IMG/VR virus record: IMGVR_UViG_3300020478_000043
Span: 1-29,116 of that record
DNA length: 29,116 bases
From: a virus
Reading direction: 5' to 3' (one strand)
Below, one piece after another: positions 9,721 to 16,311 of the stretch. Every line of letters starts with the position of its first letter. The first letter of the stretch is position 1. Under the pieces are notes generated by a model. It was not told the origin of the DNA. It did not search any database and saw only the letters and a program-made list of their open reading frames with translations. The position numbers were made by a program, and so were the translations under genes.

Positions 9721-10157
9721 CTACTAGTACTATTGAACCACAAGTTAACTGGAAGCCTGAAATGATGGTGGAGGTTATGCTTAACGAACCAGATGATTTC
9801 CTTAAAGTACGTGAGACATTAACACGTATTGGAGTTGCCTCAAGGAAGGAGAAAAAGTTATATCAATCTTGCCACATTCTTCATAAGCAAGGTCGCTATT
9901 ACATTACTCACTTCAAAGAATTATTCGCATTAGATGGGAAACACGCTAACCTTACTGTTAACGACGTTCAGCGTCGGAATCGTATCGCTCGTTTGCTTTC
10001 TGATTGGGGTCTCATATCAGTAGTTAATTCAGAATCTATAGTAGATGTTGCACCTTTGAATCAAATTAAGGTGTTGGCATACAAAGATAAGAACGATTGG
10101 ATCCTGGAACAAAAATATAACATCGGTTCTAAGAAAAAAGTGGAAACTACTGAGTAA
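9717..10157 (+). CDS. regA: RegA translational repressor
   Basis: RegA binds early phage mRNAs near their start codons and blocks ribosome entry. The core MVEVMLNEPDDFLKVRETL aligns with T4 RegA (MIEITLKKPEDFLKVKETL), and the segments LYQSCHILHKQGRYYITHFKE and RIARLLSDWGLI are also shared. The T4 protein is 122 residues; this frame gives 146, with about 16 extra at the N-terminus. ATG 9717 overlaps the gp62 stop (ATGA), supporting coupling. ATGs at 9762 and 9765 align with the T4 start and remain alternatives. The gene lies between gp62 and, after an insertion, gp43, as in T4. Confidence 0.93.
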   Translation: MTTSTIEPQVNWKPEMMVEVMLNEPDDFLKVRETLTRIGVASRKEKKLYQSCHILHKQGRYYITHFKELFALDGKHANLTVNDVQRRNRIARLLSDWGLISVVNSESIVDVAPLNQIKVLAYKDKNDWILEQKYNIGSKKKVETTE

Positions 10158-10180
10158 ATAGAGTATAATCTCTTTAGTAG
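10147..10180 (+). promoter_or_regulatory. Promoter of the phosphorylase gene with dyad around the -10 box
   Basis: TATAAT at 10164-10169 lies 21 nt before ATG 10191. TGGAAA at 10141-10146, 17 bp upstream, matches the -35 consensus at four of six positions. The -10 box is framed by an imperfect inverted repeat: CTACT (10147-10151) with AGTAG (10176-10180), and AGAG with CTCT directly beside TATAAT. The leader has no Shine-Dalgarno site and ends CACCATT-ATG. The dyad could be an operator or chance. Confidence 0.55.
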
Positions 10181-10190
10181 TATCACCATT

Positions 10191-12575
10191 ATGTCATTAC
10201 TTTATAATGGTATCAAAGAACGTCTATTTTATACATTAGGTAAACGTCCAGATATCGCAACATCACACGATTTTTACATGGCACTTAGTTATGCCGTGCG
10301 AGATCAGATGATGACGCATTGGTTAGACACCAAACCAAAGTCGAAGAAAGAAGTAGCATATCTATCAGCAGAGTTTTTAATTGGTCCTCAACTTAATAGG
10401 AATCTTATTAACTTAGGGATTCGTGATGAAGCAGAGCAAGCATTAAAAGAATACGATCAAGATATAGAGAAGATACTTACACAAGCAGAGGAACCTGGAC
10501 TTGGTAATGGTGGTTTAGGTCGTCTTGCTGCATGTTATATGGAGTCTCTAGCGACTCTACAAGTACCTGCTACTGGTTATGGTATCAGATATAAGTATGG
10601 TATCTTTAAGCAGATTATAAGAGAGAATCAACAACTTGAGATAACTGATAATTGGTTGCATGGAGAATGGCCTTGGGAATTGTGTCAACCAGATGAATCA
10701 GTTCATGTAGGATTTGGTGGTAAGGTAGAGAATTATATCTCAGATCATAATCATTACAGGGTACGTTGGGTTCCTGATGAACAAGTAGTTGCAGTACCAT
10801 ATGATGTATTGCAGTTAGGATATAGAGTTAACTCTTGCAATAGGTTGAGATTATGGAGAGCAGATGCTACTGAGACATTTGACTTCTATGCATTTAATAT
10901 TGGAGATTATCTTGGTTCAGTAGAACAGAGTGTATCTTCAGAAACTATCTCTAAGGTATTGTATCCTAATGATGGTACAGATGCTGGTAAGCAATTAAGA
11001 CTGAAGCAACAGTTCTTTTTTGTTAGTGCATCTCTACAAGATATGTTTAATAGTCTTAATAGGAGAGGTATTCCTATTGAGAAGTTTCCTGAATATTGGC
11101 AGGTTCAATTAAATGATACTCATCCATCTATTGCTGTAGCAGAGTTGATGAGATTATTTGTAGATGTAAATCATATGGAGTGGGATCAGGCATGGGAGTT
11201 AACTACTCAGTCTATTGCTTACACTAACCATACTCTTTTACCAGAGGCATTGGAGAAGTGGGATCTTAAATTATTTAAGAATCTTCTTCCTCGCCATATG
11301 GAGATTATCTATGAGATTAATCGTAGATTCTTACAGGTAGTAAGACTTCATTATCCTGGTAATGAATCCATACAAGAGAAGTTATCTATTATTGATGAAT
11401 CTCATAACAAGTATGTTCGTATGGCACATCTTGCTACTGTAGGATCTCATCATGTAAATGGTGTTGCTGCTTTACACTCTGAGTTAGTTAAGACACAATT
11501 GATGCCAGAGTTCTCTGAGTTATGGCCTCATAAGTTTACTAACGTAACTAATGGAGTTACACCTCGTCGTTGGATAGCATCTTGCAATCCATCATTAACT
11601 GAAGTTCTTGATCAATATTGTGGTTCTGATTGGATCACTAATATGGGTCAACTTAAAAAATTAGAAAGTAATATTGACTATGATCTATTAGAGAAGTTGG
11701 GAACAGCAAAACTAATAGGTAAACATAGACTTGCTGATTATATCTTCAAGAATCTTGGTATATCTGTTGATCCTAATAGCATGTTTGATGTGCATGTTAA
11801 AAGGATACATGAATATAAGAGACAACATTTACTTGTTCTTCAGATTATCTCTCAGTATCTTAATATCAAAAACGGAAAGGACTTCGTTCCTCGCACAGTA
11901 ATATTTGGTGGTAAAGCAGCACCAGGTTATTACATGGCAAAACATATCATTCATTTTATTAATTCTGTTGCAGAGGTTATTAATACTGATCCTGATATGG
12001 ATGGTAAGTTGCGTGTAGTCTTCTTACCAAACTATAGTGTTAAGTTAGGGGAACTTGTATATCCTGCTGCTGATTTATCCGAACAGATATCTACAGCAGG
12101 TAAGGAAGCATCAGGCACAGGGAATATGAAGTTCATGATGAATGGTGCTCTTACTATAGGAACACTTGATGGTGCTAATGTAGAGATACGTGAACTTGTA
12201 GGAGAAGATAACTTCTTCTTATTTGGTAAGACTGAATCTGAGATTGCAGACTTATGGAAGAATAACTATGATCCTAAGCACTATATGAGTCCAGAACTTT
12301 GGGAAGTAATTGATCTCATTAAAGGTGGACATTTTACTGGGGGTAATAAAGATGTCTTTAATCCATTAATGGATAACCTTTTGAATCATGATCCCTTCTG
12401 CGTATGTGCAGACTTTGATGATTACATACATGCTCATGAACGTGTACGTGATGCATGGAGAGATCGTGATAAGTGGAATCACATGGCGGTTATCAACACT
12501 TCAAGGTCTGGTTTCTTCTCTTCTGATAGATCTATTACGGATTACTGTACTAAAATTTGGGGTATTCCGACCTAG
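10191..12575 (+). CDS. glgP: Glycogen/starch/maltodextrin phosphorylase (GT35)
   Basis: This 794-residue PLP enzyme cleaves alpha-1,4-glucans with phosphate to glucose-1-phosphate. It is full length (E. coli MalP is about 797 and GlgP about 815). Diagnostic segments are all present: VAYLSAEFLIG near 55-65, GLGNGGLGRLAACYMESLAT at 103-122, NVTNGVTPRRW, FDVHVKRIHEYKRQ, and the cofactor site EASGTGNMKFMMNG with the PLP lysine at about K647. Base use is phage-like, with AT-rich third positions, so it is not a recent copy from a GC-rich host. It is inserted between regA and hsp20 with its own promoter and no clear Shine-Dalgarno site. It would let the phage mobilise host glycogen, in line with cyanophage carbon-metabolism genes such as talC, zwf and gnd. 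Family assignment is certain; exact substrate preference is not. Confidence 0.95.
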   Translation: MSLLYNGIKERLFYTLGKRPDIATSHDFYMALSYAVRDQMMTHWLDTKPKSKKEVAYLSAEFLIGPQLNRNLINLGIRDEAEQALKEYDQDIEKILTQAEEPGLGNGGLGRLAACYMESLATLQVPATGYGIRYKYGIFKQIIRENQQLEITDNWLHGEWPWELCQPDESVHVGFGGKVENYISDHNHYRVRWVPDEQVVAVPYDVLQLGYRVNSCNRLRLWRADATETFDFYAFNIGDYLGSVEQSVSSETISKVLYPNDGTDAGKQLRLKQQFFFVSASLQDMFNSLNRRGIPIEKFPEYWQVQLNDTHPSIAVAELMRLFVDVNHMEWDQAWELTTQSIAYTNHTLLPEALEKWDLKLFKNLLPRHMEIIYEINRRFLQVVRLHYPGNESIQEKLSIIDESHNKYVRMAHLATVGSHHVNGVAALHSELVKTQLMPEFSELWPHKFTNVTNGVTPRRWIASCNPSLTEVLDQYCGSDWITNMGQLKKLESNIDYDLLEKLGTAKLIGKHRLADYIFKNLGISVDPNSMFDVHVKRIHEYKRQHLLVLQIISQYLNIKNGKDFVPRTVIFGGKAAPGYYMAKHIIHFINSVAEVINTDPDMDGKLRVVFLPNYSVKLGELVYPAADLSEQISTAGKEASGTGNMKFMMNGALTIGTLDGANVEIRELVGEDNFFLFGKTESEIADLWKNNYDPKHYMSPELWEVIDLIKGGHFTGGNKDVFNPLMDNLLNHDPFCVCADFDDYIHAHERVRDAWRDRDKWNHMAVINTSRSGFFSSDRSITDYCTKIWGIPT

Positions 12576-12592
12576 GTTTTTCTAAGTTGTAG

Positions 12593-12598
12593 TATAAT
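12593..12598 (+). promoter_or_regulatory. Promoter -10 box (TATAAT) for hsp20
   Basis: TATAAT lies 61 nt upstream of the hsp20 ATG. There is no good -35 at 16-18 bp (ACCTAG is found there). The predicted start point near 12605 would begin the transcript right at the stable hairpin 12604-12624. Confidence 0.5.
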
Positions 12599-12603
12599 TA
12601 GTA

Positions 12604-12624
12604 GTGTACGCCGAAAGGGTACAC
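12604..12624 (+). promoter_or_regulatory. 5'-terminal mRNA hairpin with GAAA tetraloop in the hsp20 leader
   Basis: GTGTAC and GTACAC form six pairs, and two further C-G pairs with one bulged G close a GAAA tetraloop. Because it would lie at the very 5' end of the mRNA it may protect the transcript from decay or take part in leader folding. There is no T-tract, so it is not a terminator. Confidence 0.5.
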
Positions 12625-12640
12625 ACAACATAAACTCGCT

Positions 12641-12657
12641 TAGTAAAGGAGCTACTA
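12641..12657 (+). promoter_or_regulatory. hsp20 ribosome binding site within a small hairpin
   Basis: AAAGGAG, an unusually strong Shine-Dalgarno site for this window, sits in the loop of a 5-bp stem TAGTA/TACTA located 3 nt before the ATG. The CTACTA arm can also pair with TAGTAG at 12599-12604 at the start of the leader. Two alternative pairings around the ribosome site allow regulation, for example by temperature. Confidence 0.4.
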
Positions 12658-12659
12658 TC

Positions 12660-13094
12660 ATGGGTAACCTAACACGTTTCCACACGGCAGATATGCCAGT
12701 ACTGTTCGATAGAATAATGAAGAACAGTATAGGGATGGACGATTATTTTGATCGGTTCATGAATCTACACGAAACCACATCAAACTATCCCCCATATAAT
12801 TTAATTCAAGTAAACAATGTCGAATCCAGATTGGAGATCGCACTTGCGGGATTCAAGAAGAAGGAAGTCAACGTCTACACGGAGTTTGGAAAATTATTTG
12901 TCGAAGGCCAAAAAGAAGACACAGAGACAGCTGAGACTTTTGTCCATAAAGGACTGGCCAAGCGGTCTTTCTCTAGGGTCTGGACAATCACAGATGATAC
13001 CGAGGTACGAGATGTCCGATTTGATGACGGATTATTGGTCGTAACACTTGGTAAAGTTGTACCAGAGCATCATGCTCGTAAGGACTTCCTATAA
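12660..13094 (+). CDS. hsp20: Small heat-shock protein, Hsp20/alpha-crystallin family
   Basis: This 144-residue chaperone binds partly unfolded proteins without ATP. The alpha-crystallin domain covers about residues 42-138, with YNLIQVNNVESRLEIALAGF, VNVYTEFGKLFVEGQKE and the closing FDDGLLVVTLGKVVPE. The usual C-terminal I-x-I tail motif is absent. hsp20 is a common gene in T4-like cyanophages and lies near gp43 there. A strong AAAGGAG site precedes the ATG. The gene has more C- and G-ending codons than the genes around it. It has its own promoter upstream and a terminator downstream, so it can be transcribed alone. Confidence 0.93.
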   Translation: MGNLTRFHTADMPVLFDRIMKNSIGMDDYFDRFMNLHETTSNYPPYNLIQVNNVESRLEIALAGFKKKEVNVYTEFGKLFVEGQKEDTETAETFVHKGLAKRSFSRVWTITDDTEVRDVRFDDGLLVVTLGKVVPEHHARKDFL

Positions 13095-13097
13095 ATA
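13089..13097 (+). promoter_or_regulatory. T4-like late promoter motif (CTATAAATA)
   Basis: CTATAAATA contains the exact T4 late promoter box TATAAATA, recognised by the gp55 sigma factor in T4-like phages. It overlaps the last codons of hsp20. It is the only exact match I noticed in the window. A terminator follows within 30 bp, so a transcript from here would be short unless readthrough occurs. Confidence 0.45.
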
Positions 13098-13120
13098 AAA
13101 CTGAATATCTTCGCCGCAAT

Positions 13121-13157
13121 GGGGTGTTCTGGCAAAATCCAGTTGACACCCCTTTTT
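13121..13157 (+). terminator. Rho-independent terminator after hsp20
   Basis: GGGGTGT (13121-13127) pairs with ACACCCC (13146-13152); inside, CTGG pairs with CCAG across a CAAAAT loop. Five T residues follow at 13153-13157. The 3' arm includes part of the TTGACA -35 box of the next promoter. Confidence 0.85.
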
Positions 13158-13171
13158 ATTGGCAGTATAAT
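13143..13171 (+). promoter_or_regulatory. Perfect sigma-70-type promoter (TTGACA-17-TATAAT)
   Basis: TTGACA at 13143-13148 and TATAAT at 13166-13171 are both full consensus matches with the optimal 17-bp spacer. It should be read by the host RNA polymerase with its primary sigma factor, so it probably drives early expression of the two small genes and gp43. The ATG at 13193 is 21 nt after the -10 box and is preceded by AACCATT with no Shine-Dalgarno site. Confidence 0.85.
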
Positions 13172-13192
13172 ACCATCATAAGATAAACCATT

Positions 13193-13537
13193 ATGGCAAA
13201 TAAACTAGCAGTAATAAAAACTGGTGAGCAGATTATTACAAAGGTTGAAGAGATGCTTTTGGACGATAAGGTTGTTGGATACTTCTTTATTAAACCATGT
13301 GTTGTAAAAACTTCAGAACCTATTGTTAATAAAGAGAGTGGTGGTGCTTCTTTTGATATTAAGTTAGCACCTTGGATTCCTTTAGGTAAAGGAACTAGGT
13401 TCCCAGTACCTTTGGATTGGATCGTTACTTTTATAGACCCAGTTGACGAACTAGCGTCAATGTATATGAATGATGTTCTCAAAGAGACTGAAGAGACTCA
13501 AGAAAAAACAATTGTAATACCTGAAGAGGACAGTTAA
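13193..13537 (+). CDS. Cyanophage small beta-rich protein, Sm-like family candidate (copy B)
   Basis: This 114-residue protein starts MANKLAVIKTGEQIITKVEE. It shares the layout of copies A (7482) and C (13538): a T-G-E-x-I-x-x-K-V-E-E opening, IKPCVV, a central LAPWIPLG, then VPLDWIVTFIDPVDELASMY. It has an extra acidic, Glu/Thr-rich tail of about 20 residues. It is the first gene behind the strongest promoter in the window and is followed after its stop, without a gap, by copy C and then the polymerase. If the Sm-like assignment holds, it binds RNA or DNA, perhaps near the replisome or in mRNA control. Confidence 0.6.
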   Translation: MANKLAVIKTGEQIITKVEEMLLDDKVVGYFFIKPCVVKTSEPIVNKESGGASFDIKLAPWIPLGKGTRFPVPLDWIVTFIDPVDELASMYMNDVLKETEETQEKTIVIPEEDS

Positions 13538-13813
13538 ATGGCAGATGAACTTAACCCACAATTAATTGTATTCCATACTGGAGGTACAGTAGTTGCTGAA
13601 ATTGAAGAAGTTGGAGCAGACATAGGAGAACCTGATTGTAAATTAATCAATCCTTATAATATTGTTCCTCAACCAAATGGTAATGCTACCTTGCAACCTT
13701 GGATGGGTGAACTAACAAATCAGAAAGAATTTATGATTAGTTCTGATAAAATCTTGACTATATGTGAACCTCTTGGTAAAATAAAAGATACATATGAAAG
13801 TCTGAACTCGTAA
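13538..13813 (+). CDS. Cyanophage small beta-rich protein, Sm-like family candidate (copy C)
   Basis: This 91-residue protein begins MADELNPQLIVFHTGGTVVA. It carries the shared family elements: H-T-G-G-T-V-V-A-E-I-E-E, INPYNIVPQP, LQPWMGEL, and SSDKILTICEPLGKIKDTY. The ATG directly follows the stop of copy B, and its own stop overlaps the gp43 start (TAATG). It lacks the acidic tail of copy B. The adjacent pair looks like an old tandem duplication. Molecular role unknown beyond the tentative Sm-like link. Confidence 0.6.
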   Translation: MADELNPQLIVFHTGGTVVAEIEEVGADIGEPDCKLINPYNIVPQPNGNATLQPWMGELTNQKEFMISSDKILTICEPLGKIKDTYESLNS

Positions 13814-16311
13814 TGAGGTTCTATACGAACGTTCAAATGGTTGGGGATAACTTCCTTGTTCGTGGTTATGAAGATGGTAAACACTTCGCAACCCGTGAGA
13901 AGTTCTACCCAACCCTTTTTGTTGAAGCACCTAAAAAGAAGACCCACTATAGAACTCTTGATGGTAAGCAGGTAGCACCTGTTAAACCTGGAACAGTACG
14001 TGAGACAAGAGAGTTTATAAAGAAGTATGAACCTGTACCAGGATTTGATGTATATGGTAATGAGAGATTTATATACCAGTACATCTCAGAGAAATATCCT
14101 GACGACGAATTGAAGTTTGATATTAGTAAGATTAAATTAGTTACAATTGATATTGAGGTTAAGTCCGAGCAAGGATTCCCTGATGTAGAATCTGCTTCTG
14201 AAGAGATACTCCTTATATCAATTCAAGACTATGCTACTAAAGAGATTATTACTTGGGGTAATGGTCCATTTAAAACTCATCAAGATAATCTATATTACAA
14301 GCAATTCAATAATGAGTATGATCTATTAAATGACTTTATCAATTGGTGGATGATAGAGGATAATACTCCAGAAGTTATTACGGGATGGAATAGTAAACTT
14401 TATGATATACCATATATTGTTCGTAGGATAGAACGTATTCTTGGTGAGAAATTAATGAAGAGATTGTCACCTTGGGGATTGGTGACTGAAGATGAGGTCT
14501 TTATTGCTGGTAGAAAACAGATTGCTTATGATATAGGTGGTGTATCTCAGTTAGACTATCTTGATCTTTATAAGAAGTTTACTTATAAGGCACAGGAGTC
14601 TTATAGGTTGGATTATATTGCTAGTGTAGAACTTGGACAGAAGAAGTTAGATCATAGTGAATTCGACACATTTAAAGATTTCTATACAAATGGGTGGAAA
14701 AAGTTTGTAGAGTATAATATAATTGACGTAGAACTTGTTGACCGTTTGGAAAGCAAGATGAAGTTGATTGAACTCGCACTCACTATGGCATATGAAGCCA
14801 AGGTGAATTACGAAGACGTATTTTATCAAGTTCGTATGTGGGATACAATCATTTATAACTATCTAAAGAAGAGGGGTATAGTAATTCCTCCAAAGATAAA
14901 AACAGATAAAGACGCAAAGTACGCAGGAGCTTATGTCAAGGAACCGAAACCAGGACGCTATGATTGGGTTGTCTCTTTTGACCTTAATAGTCTGTATCCT
15001 CATCTTATTATGCAATACAATATCAGTCCAGAGACCCTCAGGGAGACTAGACATCCCAGCTCGAGCGTTGAACGGATTCTAAACAAAGAGTGTGACTTTG
15101 ACGGTGAGTATTCTGTTTGTGCTAATGGAGCACAATATAGGAAGGATATTCGTGGGTTCCTTCCTGAACTAATGGATAAGATGTATGGAGATCGTGTGAT
15201 CTTCAAGAAAAAAATGTTGGAGGCAAAGCAAGCATATGAGAAGACCCCCACTGAGGCATTGGAAAAGGAAATTGCAAGATGCAACAACATCCAAATGGCG
15301 AAAAAGATCTCTCTTAATTCTGCTTATGGTGCTATCGGCAATCAGTACTTCAGGTATTTTAAATTAGCAAATGCCGAGGCGATTACTTTATCTGGGCAAG
15401 TATCTATTCGATGGATAGAGAATAAGATGAATGCCTATATGAATAAACTTTTGAAAACAGAGGATGTAGATTATGTTATTGCTAGTGATACTGATAGTAT
15501 CTATCTCAACTTGGGTCCTTTGGTTGAGACTGTATACAAGGGGCGAGAGAAAACTAATGAGGTCGTTGTTGGGTTCCTTGACAAGGTGTGTCAAACTAAA
15601 CTTGAACCTTATATTGAAAGTGCTTACGAAGAATTGGCCAGGTATGTCAACGCCTACGACCAAAAAATGCAAATGAAGCGAGAGAATATCGCTGAACGTG
15701 GTATTTGGACTGCTAAGAAAAGATATATTTTAAATGTGTGGGATAGTGAAGGAGTAAGATATGAAGAAGCTAAGTTAAAGATGATGGGTATTGAAGCAGT
15801 TAAGTCTTCTACTCCTGCACCATGTCGTCAGTTAATTAAGGAAGCACTTAAACTTATAATGAATGGTACAGAAGATGATGTTATTGATTTTATTGAGCAG
15901 TCTCGTAAGGATTTTAAGAATCTTCCACCAGAAGATATCTCGTTTCCAAGATCTGCAAGTAACGTTGAGAAGTATAGAGCAGTAAATTCGATATATGCAA
16001 AAGGAACTCCTATACATATACGGGGGGCTTTGCTGTTTAACTATTATGTTAAGAAACATAAGTTAGATAAAAAGTACTCATTCATCAGTAATGGTGAGAA
16101 GGTTAAATTTTGTTATTTAAAATTACCCAATCCTATACATGAGAATGTGATGTCTTTTATTCAAGACTTCCCTAAGGAACTTGAATTGAACAACTACGTT
16201 GATTACGATCTACAATTTGAGAAGTCTTTTGTTGAACCTCTCAAAGCGATTCTTGATGCGATTGGTTGGAATGTAGAAAAAACTGCGACGCTGGAGGCGT
16301 TTTTTACCTAA
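13813..16311 (+). CDS. 43: DNA polymerase, family B, T4 gp43 homologue
   Basis: This 832-residue replicative polymerase has 3'-5' proofreading. Exonuclease motif I is TIDIEV with D113 and E115, Exo II is GWNSKLYDIPY, Exo III is YNIIDVELV. Polymerase motif A is FDLNSLYP with D390, motif B KKISLNSAYG at 497-506, and motif C SDTDS with D559 and D561. T4 gp43 is 898 residues, so this form is slightly compact. In T4 the gene is repressed by its own product; RegA acts on other early genes. It overlaps copy C by one base. A weak terminator-like hairpin lies in its last codons, before three tiny genes and uvsX. Confidence 0.97.
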   Translation: MRFYTNVQMVGDNFLVRGYEDGKHFATREKFYPTLFVEAPKKKTHYRTLDGKQVAPVKPGTVRETREFIKKYEPVPGFDVYGNERFIYQYISEKYPDDELKFDISKIKLVTIDIEVKSEQGFPDVESASEEILLISIQDYATKEIITWGNGPFKTHQDNLYYKQFNNEYDLLNDFINWWMIEDNTPEVITGWNSKLYDIPYIVRRIERILGEKLMKRLSPWGLVTEDEVFIAGRKQIAYDIGGVSQLDYLDLYKKFTYKAQESYRLDYIASVELGQKKLDHSEFDTFKDFYTNGWKKFVEYNIIDVELVDRLESKMKLIELALTMAYEAKVNYEDVFYQVRMWDTIIYNYLKKRGIVIPPKIKTDKDAKYAGAYVKEPKPGRYDWVVSFDLNSLYPHLIMQYNISPETLRETRHPSSSVERILNKECDFDGEYSVCANGAQYRKDIRGFLPELMDKMYGDRVIFKKKMLEAKQAYEKTPTEALEKEIARCNNIQMAKKISLNSAYGAIGNQYFRYFKLANAEAITLSGQVSIRWIENKMNAYMNKLLKTEDVDYVIASDTDSIYLNLGPLVETVYKGREKTNEVVVGFLDKVCQTKLEPYIESAYEELARYVNAYDQKMQMKRENIAERGIWTAKKRYILNVWDSEGVRYEEAKLKMMGIEAVKSSTPAPCRQLIKEALKLIMNGTEDDVIDFIEQSRKDFKNLPPEDISFPRSASNVEKYRAVNSIYAKGTPIHIRGALLFNYYVKKHKLDKKYSFISNGEKVKFCYLKLPNPIHENVMSFIQDFPKELELNNYVDYDLQFEKSFVEPLKAILDAIGWNVEKTATLEAFFT
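16288..16305 (+). terminator. Weak terminator-like hairpin at the 3' end of gp43
   Basis: ACGC (16288-16291) and GCGT (16297-16300) can pair across a TGGAG loop, followed by a run of six T residues. An A-run upstream could extend pairing with the T-run across a bulge. The stem is only 4 bp, so termination would be partial at best; it may tune expression between gp43 and uvsX. Confidence 0.3.

What the first reader, a model, noticed from the sequence alone, without database searches (positions are those of the whole stretch)
13121..13171. Terminator whose stem overlaps a perfect sigma-70 promoter
The 3' arm ACACCCC of the hsp20 terminator shares bases 13146-13148 with the TTGACA box, and TATAAT follows at 17 bp. 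Termination and initiation are packed into 51 bp. When upstream transcription passes, the polymerase would occupy the -35 box, so hsp20 output may interfere with expression of the small genes and gp43.
Basis: seen in the sequence. Interest (0 to 1): 0.55.

Follow-up and report, generated by a model that had tools for sequence, protein, structure and literature searches.

The report
Cyanophage terminator carrying a built-in promoter
A stretch of about 100 bases, shared by many viruses of marine cyanobacteria, packs a late start signal, a short probable RNA and its stop hairpin into one unit, and usually threads the start signal of the next genes through that hairpin; if the short RNA is real it would be a new regulator in widespread ocean viruses.

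Summary
In detail: an intrinsic-terminator hairpin (13121-13152, T5 to 13157) carries the -35 box (13143-13148) of a 12/12 sigma-70 promoter. It is neither chance nor local. It is the 3' half of a conserved cyanomyovirus element: T4-type late promoter TATAAATA (overlapping the upstream stop codon), usually 5 nt, a block GAATATCKTCGNCGCA, hairpin, T tract, and mostly a -10 box 17 bp after a TTGACN box inside the hairpin's 3' arm. Of 75 distinct relatives retrieved by hairpin sequence alone, 72 have the block and 74 TAAATA. A covariance model finds one strong copy in 10 of 14 complete cyanophage genomes, in 4 of the 7 chosen without regard to it. In S-PM2 and Syn1 it precedes a convergent gene and lacks the promoter, so late promoter, block and terminator look like a unit: a predicted ~55-nt late RNA. 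In most sampled contigs, as here, the promoter faces an Sm/LSm-like gene; in only 2 of the 10 named genomes. I read it as a terminator-promoter junction fused to a candidate small-RNA gene, PeSL-like but single-copy and with added parts. Interference from hsp20 transcription is possible but untested. No RNA data were available.

The parts
12660..13094 (+). hsp20 (144 aa), gene upstream of the element; its stop codon TAA 13092-13094 is the TAA of TAAATA
   Evidence: ORF; Pfam HSP20 2.9e-12, phrog_432 1e-53
13090..13097 (+). predicted T4-type late promoter TATAAATA
   Evidence: sequence; TAAATA 6 nt before AATATC in 199 of 236 related elements and in 53 of 71 elements retrieved by the hairpin alone; TAAATA is the commonest of the 15 permutations of A4T2 upstream of 650 mechanical ORFs in six complete cyanophage genomes
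13103..13119 (+). conserved 5' block GAATATCTTCGCCGCAA; G13103 is the late start expected if TATAAATA occupies -13 to -6
   Evidence: T4 spacing from PMC1524935 (passage)
13121..13152 (+). terminator hairpin GGGGTGTTCTGG-CAAAAT-CCAGTTGACACCCC
   Evidence: fold -18.2 kcal/mol, z -4.1; model R1 74.6 bits at 13091-13161
13153..13157 (+). T tract of the terminator, lying in the -35/-10 spacer
   Evidence: sequence
13103..13157 (+). predicted short late RNA (about 55 nt)
   Evidence: inference from late promoter, 5' block and terminator; no RNA data
13143..13148 (+). -35 box TTGACA inside the hairpin 3' arm
13166..13171 (+). -10 box TATAAT, spacer 17; expected start near 13178
13193..13537 (+). Sm/LSm-like protein 1 (114 aa)
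   Evidence: profile of 30 sequences (this one and 29 relatives) hits PDB 3by7 at 5e-10; predicted fold matches 3by7, then spliceosomal Sm chains; on its own DUF6561 only below cut-off
13538..13813 (+). Sm/LSm-like protein 2 (91 aa), DUF6561
   Evidence: PF20198 1.1e-25; 3by7 0.0011
13813..16311 (+). gp43 DNA polymerase
   Evidence: ORF; DNA_pol_B 1.3e-30

Best explanation
The 51 bp are the 3' half of a cyanomyovirus element of roughly 100 bp with three linked functions. (1) Its hairpin and T tract end transcription of the gene in front (here hsp20). (2) The same hairpin carries, in its 3' arm, the -35 box of a host-type sigma-70 promoter that starts the next operon at about 13178 (two Sm/LSm-like proteins, then gp43). 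(3) A T4-type late promoter at 13090-13097 starts a short RNA at about G13103 that carries the conserved GAAUAUC-UCG-CGCA block and ends at the same terminator, giving a late RNA of about 55 nt. Early in infection host polymerase would use the sigma-70 promoter; late in infection gp55-polymerase would make the short RNA and, by terminating over the -35/-10 region, could also quieten the early promoter. Shown by comparison: the composite layout, its conservation, one strong copy per genome where present, and dependence of the promoter on what lies downstream. Inferred: that each signal works, that the short RNA exists, its role, and the late shut-off.
For: Retrieval by the hairpin 19-mer only (the 80 listed of 119 rows analysed): of 75 distinct usable elements 72 have the 5' block with at most 1 mismatch, 74 TAAATA (background 3.6% per 75 nt), 75 a -10 box with at most 2 mismatches, 75 a T tract. 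Retrieval by late promoter plus block: 230 distinct elements, 195 with a promoter in register, spacer 17 in 204 of the 207 found before the register rule. Control: of 97 distinct 16-mer matches in loci L037-L154, 64 of 68 with TAAATA have a strong hairpin plus T tract, against 0 of 29 without TAAATA (3 of the 29 have a hairpin but no T tract). In the main group the gap fits T4's -13/-6 geometry so that +1 is the first conserved base, G. Base 6 of the -35 box varies (A71 G60 T56 C8 of 195) and pairs (G-U allowed) with the 5' arm in 27 of 37 distinct hairpins of the commonest class, shuffle p 0.0005, relatedness not corrected. Exchanging 3' arms between elements weakens hairpins from -19.0 to -12.2 kcal/mol on average. 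One strong model match in 10 of 14 named genomes. Promoter present in 166 of 172 elements before the Sm-like cluster and in 0 of 13 before the MFHIY-type gene. S-PM2 and Syn1 keep TAAATA, block and hairpin before a convergent gene but lack the promoter.
Against: No RNA 5' or 3' end was seen. The gap between TAAATA and the block is not fixed: it is 6 nt in 53 of 71, 7 in 4, 3-4 in 9, longer in 5, and the base before AATATC is G in 58, A in 9, T in 4. In Syn1, Syn9, Syn33 and S-ShM2 it is 3-4 nt (block begins CATATC or TATATC) and in S-SKS1 longer, so there the T4 rule would put the start inside or before the block. The retrieval patterns fix parts of the element, so invariance of those columns in alignment A1 is partly by selection; one search is free of that for the block and TAAATA. 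P-SSM2, P-HM2 and P-SSM4 gave no model match (strict filters) and S-CRM01 only a weak one (E 0.06) without TAAATA or hairpin. Only 2 of the 10 named genomes with the element have it before the Sm-like genes. No target for the block stood out: host genomes 39 near-matches against 21 for the reversed control, not examined further; phage translation starts no better than shuffled seeds. The window's copy lacks the TG before the -10 box that 178 of 195 promoter-bearing relatives have.
Confidence: 0.6

Rival explanations
1. Only a compact terminator-promoter junction of the PeSL type: it separates two operons and serves as a seam for gene exchange; the conserved 5' block and late promoter are a leftover or a 3'-UTR stability element, and no independent RNA is made.
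For: The element can sit at a module seam: L035 is 98.5% and 99.4% identical to the window on either side, with 172 bases holding a small gene in place of 5 bases just before TAAATA. Upstream genes differ between loci: the hsp20 cluster in 114 of 182, another small protein in 38. Two other cyanophage 12/12 promoters with the -35 in the loop or 3' arm of a terminator-like hairpin were seen in P-SSM7 and S-SM2.
Against: A block next to the expected late start, kept in S-PM2, Syn1 and Syn9 where the TTGAC box is absent, and one strong copy per genome, are not expected of a plain seam.
Confidence: 0.23
2. One reading: transcription through hsp20 occludes the -35 box and tunes the downstream genes.
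For: Geometry: the T tract lies in the spacer, so a terminating polymerase would cover the promoter (footprint size from general knowledge).
Against: hsp20 is not the fixed upstream gene; a terminator at this place would protect the promoter from read-through; the predicted late short transcript is a nearer source of occlusion.
Confidence: 0.08
3. A DNA-level site, such as a replication origin, recombination or packaging site, that happens to look like transcription signals.
For: One strong copy per genome where present, in different places, strongly conserved; in S-SM2 it lies 190 bp from the detrended GC-skew minimum and in S-PM2 2.7 kb from the maximum.
Against: In the other four of six genomes the skew extremes are 13 kb or more away; stem arms vary together to keep pairing, which points to RNA.
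Confidence: 0.05
4. A leader or attenuator acting on hsp20 or the downstream genes through the hairpin.
For: In L044, L050 and L117 a promoter after the block is followed by a second hairpin and T tract near the next start codon.
Against: In the common form the sigma-70 start lies after the hairpin, so the hairpin is not in the downstream mRNA.
Confidence: 0.04

Closest known systems
PeSL, promoter-early stem-loop of T4-like phages (Arbiol 2010; Comeau 2014)
   Same: A stem-loop terminator and an early sigma-70 promoter fused in one small cassette, with gene indels at it
   Different: PeSLs occur in many copies in hyperplastic regions (recalled; a passage of PMC4503421, speaks of a high density in regions of shuffling); this element has one strong copy per genome, a late promoter and a conserved 5' block. 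The two PeSL papers are not held, so the definition is from recall and that passage.
T4 late promoters (gp55/gp33/gp45)
   Same: TATAAATA with the start 6 nt after its last base (PMC1524935, passage); the motif is over-represented upstream of ORFs in these genomes
   Different: Here it lies at the end of a gene and would make only about 55 nt before a terminator
Small RNAs with own promoter and intrinsic terminator; cyanophage CfrI, wcaG, manA, PhotoRC-II
   Same: Short phage RNA with its own terminator is a known kind
   Different: No Rfam family matches the window at gathering score, only matches of E 1.3 or worse around the element; CfrI is an antisense RNA at psbA (PMC12197685, passages)
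Sm/LSm-like protein PDB 3by7 (DUF6561)
   Same: Sequence profile and predicted fold of the downstream proteins match it
   Different: RNA binding by these phage proteins is untested

Membership tests
Intrinsic (Rho-independent) terminator | stable GC-rich hairpin directly followed by a T tract | tested here: met
   -18.2 kcal/mol and TTTTT
Intrinsic (Rho-independent) terminator | ends transcripts in vivo or in vitro | not testable with these tools
   needs RNA ends
sigma-70 promoter | TTGACA, 16-18 nt, TATAAT | tested here: met
   12 of 12, spacer 17; present at 3 or fewer mismatches in 195 of 230 relatives
T4-type late promoter | TATAAATA at -13 to -6 of the start | tested here: inconclusive
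   motif present at 13090-13097 and enriched before ORFs; the start was not mapped, and the gap to the block varies in a minority
PeSL | stem-loop terminator joined to an early promoter | tested here: met
PeSL | many near-identical copies per genome (recalled) | tested here: not met
   one strong model match per genome or record
PeSL | gene exchange or indels bounded by the element | tested here: met
   172 bases for 5 just before TAAATA in L035; one such pair examined closely
Bacterial/phage small RNA gene | own promoter, discrete RNA, terminator | tested here: inconclusive
   promoter and terminator signals present; RNA not seen
Bacterial/phage small RNA gene | base-paired target or bound protein | tested here: inconclusive
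   no target stood out
Sm/LSm-like proteins (downstream genes) | Sm fold | tested here: met
   by sequence profile and predicted fold only

The most novel reading that the evidence does not exclude
Cyanomyoviruses carry a conserved late small RNA whose terminator doubles as the early promoter of phage-encoded Sm/LSm-like proteins: RNA and RNA-binding protein form one riboregulatory module, and late synthesis of the RNA switches off the early promoter by terminating on top of it.
Probability: 0.2. Interest if true: 0.85.

Novelty: new variant of a known kind. Interest (0 to 1): 0.6.

Why it matters
[quoted passage not shown] An element that joins a late promoter, a conserved candidate RNA, a terminator and an early promoter, in most sampled contigs beside Sm-like proteins, gives a concrete place to test small-RNA control and early-late switching. 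Hfq was reported absent from 10 of 12 sequenced Prochlorococcus strains (PMC2518516, passage), so phage-borne Sm-like proteins beside a candidate RNA would be of interest. It also shows how far one sequence can be shared: the -35 box accepts any sixth base, and that base tends to follow the needs of the stem.

Tried and rejected
Chance: rejected. A known Rfam RNA: none. Complement or copy of the 5' block in ten picocyanobacterial genomes, up to 2 mismatches: 15 forward and 24 reverse against 10 and 11 for the reversed control; the excess includes one near-match repeated on four contigs of one genome and one repeated at two contig ends of another; I did not look at what lies there. Target at phage translation starts in six genomes: shuffled seeds did as well or better in 10 to 18 of 20 trials. 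Replication origin by GC skew: S-SM2 190 bp and S-PM2 2.7 kb from an extreme, the other four of six 13 kb or more away. An early hairpin test used too strict a T-tract rule and missed true hairpins; replaced. The model's automatic structure misplaces some lower-stem pairs because linker lengths differ; I made no covariation claim from it. The 16-mer search with 3 mismatches also gives scattered second matches at about the level of its reversed control, and its only match in S-SKS1 is not the element, so the copy-number claim rests on the model. Rows dropped: of 56 representatives two (L044, L074) were left out of A1 as variant forms, 3 of 80 loci had the match too near an end. Of the 14 named genomes, seven (Syn9, P-SSM7, S-CAM22, S-RIM8, S-SM2, S-SKS1, P-SSM2) had been picked from hits of the element or its surrounding region and seven by recalled accession; 6 and 4 of them have the element. 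The apical loop CTGG-CAAAAT-CCAG is more uniform in promoter-bearing than in promoterless elements, which would fit an UP-element role of the A tract (recalled), but selects for that loop, so I make no claim.

Paper searches for prior description: no held paper contains the block or loop words searched, apart from one unrelated paper with the loop word, and I saw no description of this element in the listings; only listings, abstracts or passages were seen, no whole paper. The two PeSL papers and a Syn9 transcriptome paper asked for by identifier are not held.

Full report
What was checked. The window is one IMG/VR virus record of 29,116 bases, a T4-like cyanophage by its matches: of 467 phage records similar to 12000-15000, 451 are named Synechococcus, cyanophage or Prochlorococcus. 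The described hairpin and promoter are at the stated positions. The hairpin is longer than stated: GGGGUGUUCUGG-CAAAAU-CCAG-UU-GACACCCC, -18.2 kcal/mol, z -4.1, and the whole -35 box lies in its 3' arm. The promoter is the only 12/12 site in the record; shuffles give 0.07 on average. In 14 complete cyanophage genomes such sites number 73, in 13 of the 14, against 7 for the reversed pattern, so perfect sigma-70 sites are real signals in these phages. In the six genomes looked at, four of them have a run of five or more T in the spacer, and in two (P-SSM7 177774, S-SM2 167150) a hairpin with the -35 in its loop or 3' arm precedes the run. The layout is thus recurrent, though not common.

Conservation. 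Of 33 viral-contig relatives of the first downstream gene, 31 show the layout by eye and two (L029, L030) do not. A 16-base block, AATATCKTCGSCGCAA, lies between the upstream stop codon and the hairpin. Real and chance matches separate: of 97 distinct matches in loci L037-L154, 64 of 68 with TAAATA just upstream have a hairpin of -12 kcal/mol or better plus a T tract; of 29 without TAAATA none do, though 3 have a hairpin. The converse test, retrieval by the hairpin 19-mer alone, gave 75 distinct usable elements among the 80 listed loci: 72 with the block at no more than 1 mismatch, 74 with TAAATA against a 3.6% background, 75 with a -10 box at no more than 2 mismatches and 75 with a T tract. 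A count over all loci held (124 distinct) agrees but mixes retrieval routes.

Anatomy. In 236 elements taken by late promoter plus block, the gap TAAATA-AATATC is 6 nt in 199 (230 after removing alternative TAAATA readings). In the 54 representatives of A1 the base before AATATC is G in 53, but these were chosen with gaps of 6 or 7. In T4 the late motif TATAAATA spans -13 to -6 (PMC1524935, passage), which puts +1 on that G. A review says that a highly similar late consensus was found in silico in S-PM2 (PMC2988020, passage). In six complete genomes TAAATA is the commonest of the 15 permutations of its bases upstream of 650 mechanical ORFs (130, next 97 for ATAAAT, the rest 44 or fewer). The late promoter is therefore credible and the block would be the first transcribed sequence. 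Against an exact rule: in the hairpin-retrieved set the gap is 6 in 53 of 71, 7 in 4, 3-4 in 9 and longer in 5, and in Syn1, Syn9, Syn33 and S-ShM2 it is 3-4 nt, in S-SKS1 longer. In the window the rule gives a late start at 13103 and an RNA of about 55 nt ending at 13157. In 157 of 182 elements with a recognisable upstream ORF its stop codon is the TAA of TAAATA.

Promoter inside the stem. 195 of 230 elements have the promoter in register (threshold 3 mismatches of 12, so some conservation is by selection). Positions 1-5 of the -35 box are T194 T187 G194 A184 C188 of 195, but position 6 is A71 G60 T56 C8. In the commonest hairpin class position 6 faces a base of the 5' arm, and 27 of 37 distinct hairpins pair there (G-U allowed), against 19 on average by shuffling, p 0.0005, without correction for relatedness. 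The stem thus seems to influence this base. The 3' arm has a bulge of two or more bases in 168 of 195 promoter-bearing but 12 of 35 other elements, as if TTGAC had been threaded into the stem. Exchanging 3' arms between elements costs 6.8 kcal/mol on average.

Copy number and context. The covariance model gives one strong match in 10 of 14 named genomes (Syn9, P-SSM7, S-CAM22, S-RIM8, S-SM2, S-SKS1, S-PM2, Syn1, S-ShM2, Syn33) and in each of the seven virus records searched with it, the window included. Seven of the 14 had been picked through hits of the element or its region (6 have it); of the seven picked by recalled accession 4 have it. P-SSM2, P-HM2 and P-SSM4 have no match under the strict filters; the weak S-CRM01 match shows neither TAAATA nor hairpin. 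Contexts differ: between hsp20 and Sm-like genes (window, S-SM2, S-SKS1); near psbA with promoter (P-SSM7, S-CAM22, S-RIM8, S-ShM2, Syn33); before a convergent virion gene, without promoter (S-PM2, Syn1); Syn9 has a hairpin without TTGAC. Over the sampled elements 172 of 216 downstream ORFs fall in one single-linkage cluster with the window's protein; of 7 members scanned 6 match DUF6561 above its cut-off and one (L143) does not. The promoter is present in 166 of these 172, in 0 of 13 before the MFHIY-type gene, and in 17 of 31 before other genes. Among the ten named genomes only S-SM2 and S-SKS1 have the element before the Sm-like genes. The promoter therefore follows the neighbour, while late promoter, block and terminator stay: the main reason to see them as a unit.

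Downstream proteins. The 91-aa protein is DUF6561 (1.1e-25) and hits PDB 3by7 (0.0011); the 114-aa protein reaches DUF6561 only below cut-off, but a profile of it and 29 relatives hits 3by7 at 5e-10. Its predicted fold (mean pLDDT 87.5) matches 3by7, titled as structurally similar to Sm/LSm-like RNA-binding proteins, and then, at weaker E-values, spliceosomal Sm chains.

Exchange at the element. L035 matches the window at 98.5% up to 13086 and 99.4% from 13092, with 172 bases in place of 5 between; they hold a small gene whose stop is again the TAA of TAAATA. This resembles what is described for PeSLs in T4-like phages (recalled; a passage in PMC4503421, says that S-PM2 has a much lower density of such elements in its variable region).

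Mechanism and limits. The layout and its conservation are shown. That the hairpin terminates, the two promoters fire, and a short RNA exists is inferred. What the RNA does is open: no target stood out. Its neighbour being Sm-like in most sampled contigs is suggestive only; eight of ten named genomes have the element elsewhere.

Novelty. No Rfam family matches; no held paper contains the block words searched, and I saw no description of it in the listings. Papers not held could have one.

Noticed in passing
10191-12575 +: Glycogen/starch phosphorylase gene (794 aa, Pfam Phosphorylase 1034 bits) in a cyanophage; among phage records the best match is Synechococcus phage S-SCSM2R at 70.8%, the only Synechococcus phage of 22 records matched.
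   Followed up: partly
10155-10160 and about 12566-12590: Alignments of the related contigs L012 and L013 stop at 10157 and resume at 12586, so the phosphorylase gene looks like a removable cassette; the left break falls on another TAAATA.
   Followed up: no
L044:555-640, L050, L117: Variant element: block, TTGGCA inside a small hairpin, TATAAT, then a second hairpin and T tract; in L050 and L117 the T tract runs into the next ATG; may be an attenuator.
   Followed up: no
L064, L074: Variant in which TTGACA lies in the 5' arm and loop and TATAAT follows directly after the stem, so the hairpin fills the spacer and lacks a good T tract.
   Followed up: no
L046, L068, L075, L085, L099, L143, L126: By eye, an extra small hairpin GGG-(GNRA-like in most)-CCC sits between the late promoter and the block in a subgroup.
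   Followed up: no
13754-13782 +: A 10 of 12 promoter-like site with TG before the -10 (TTGACT-17-TAAAAT) ends 30 bases before gp43 starts.
   Followed up: no
P-SSM7 177774 and S-SM2 167150: Other terminator-promoter overlaps with the -35 box in the hairpin loop or 3' arm.
   Followed up: partly
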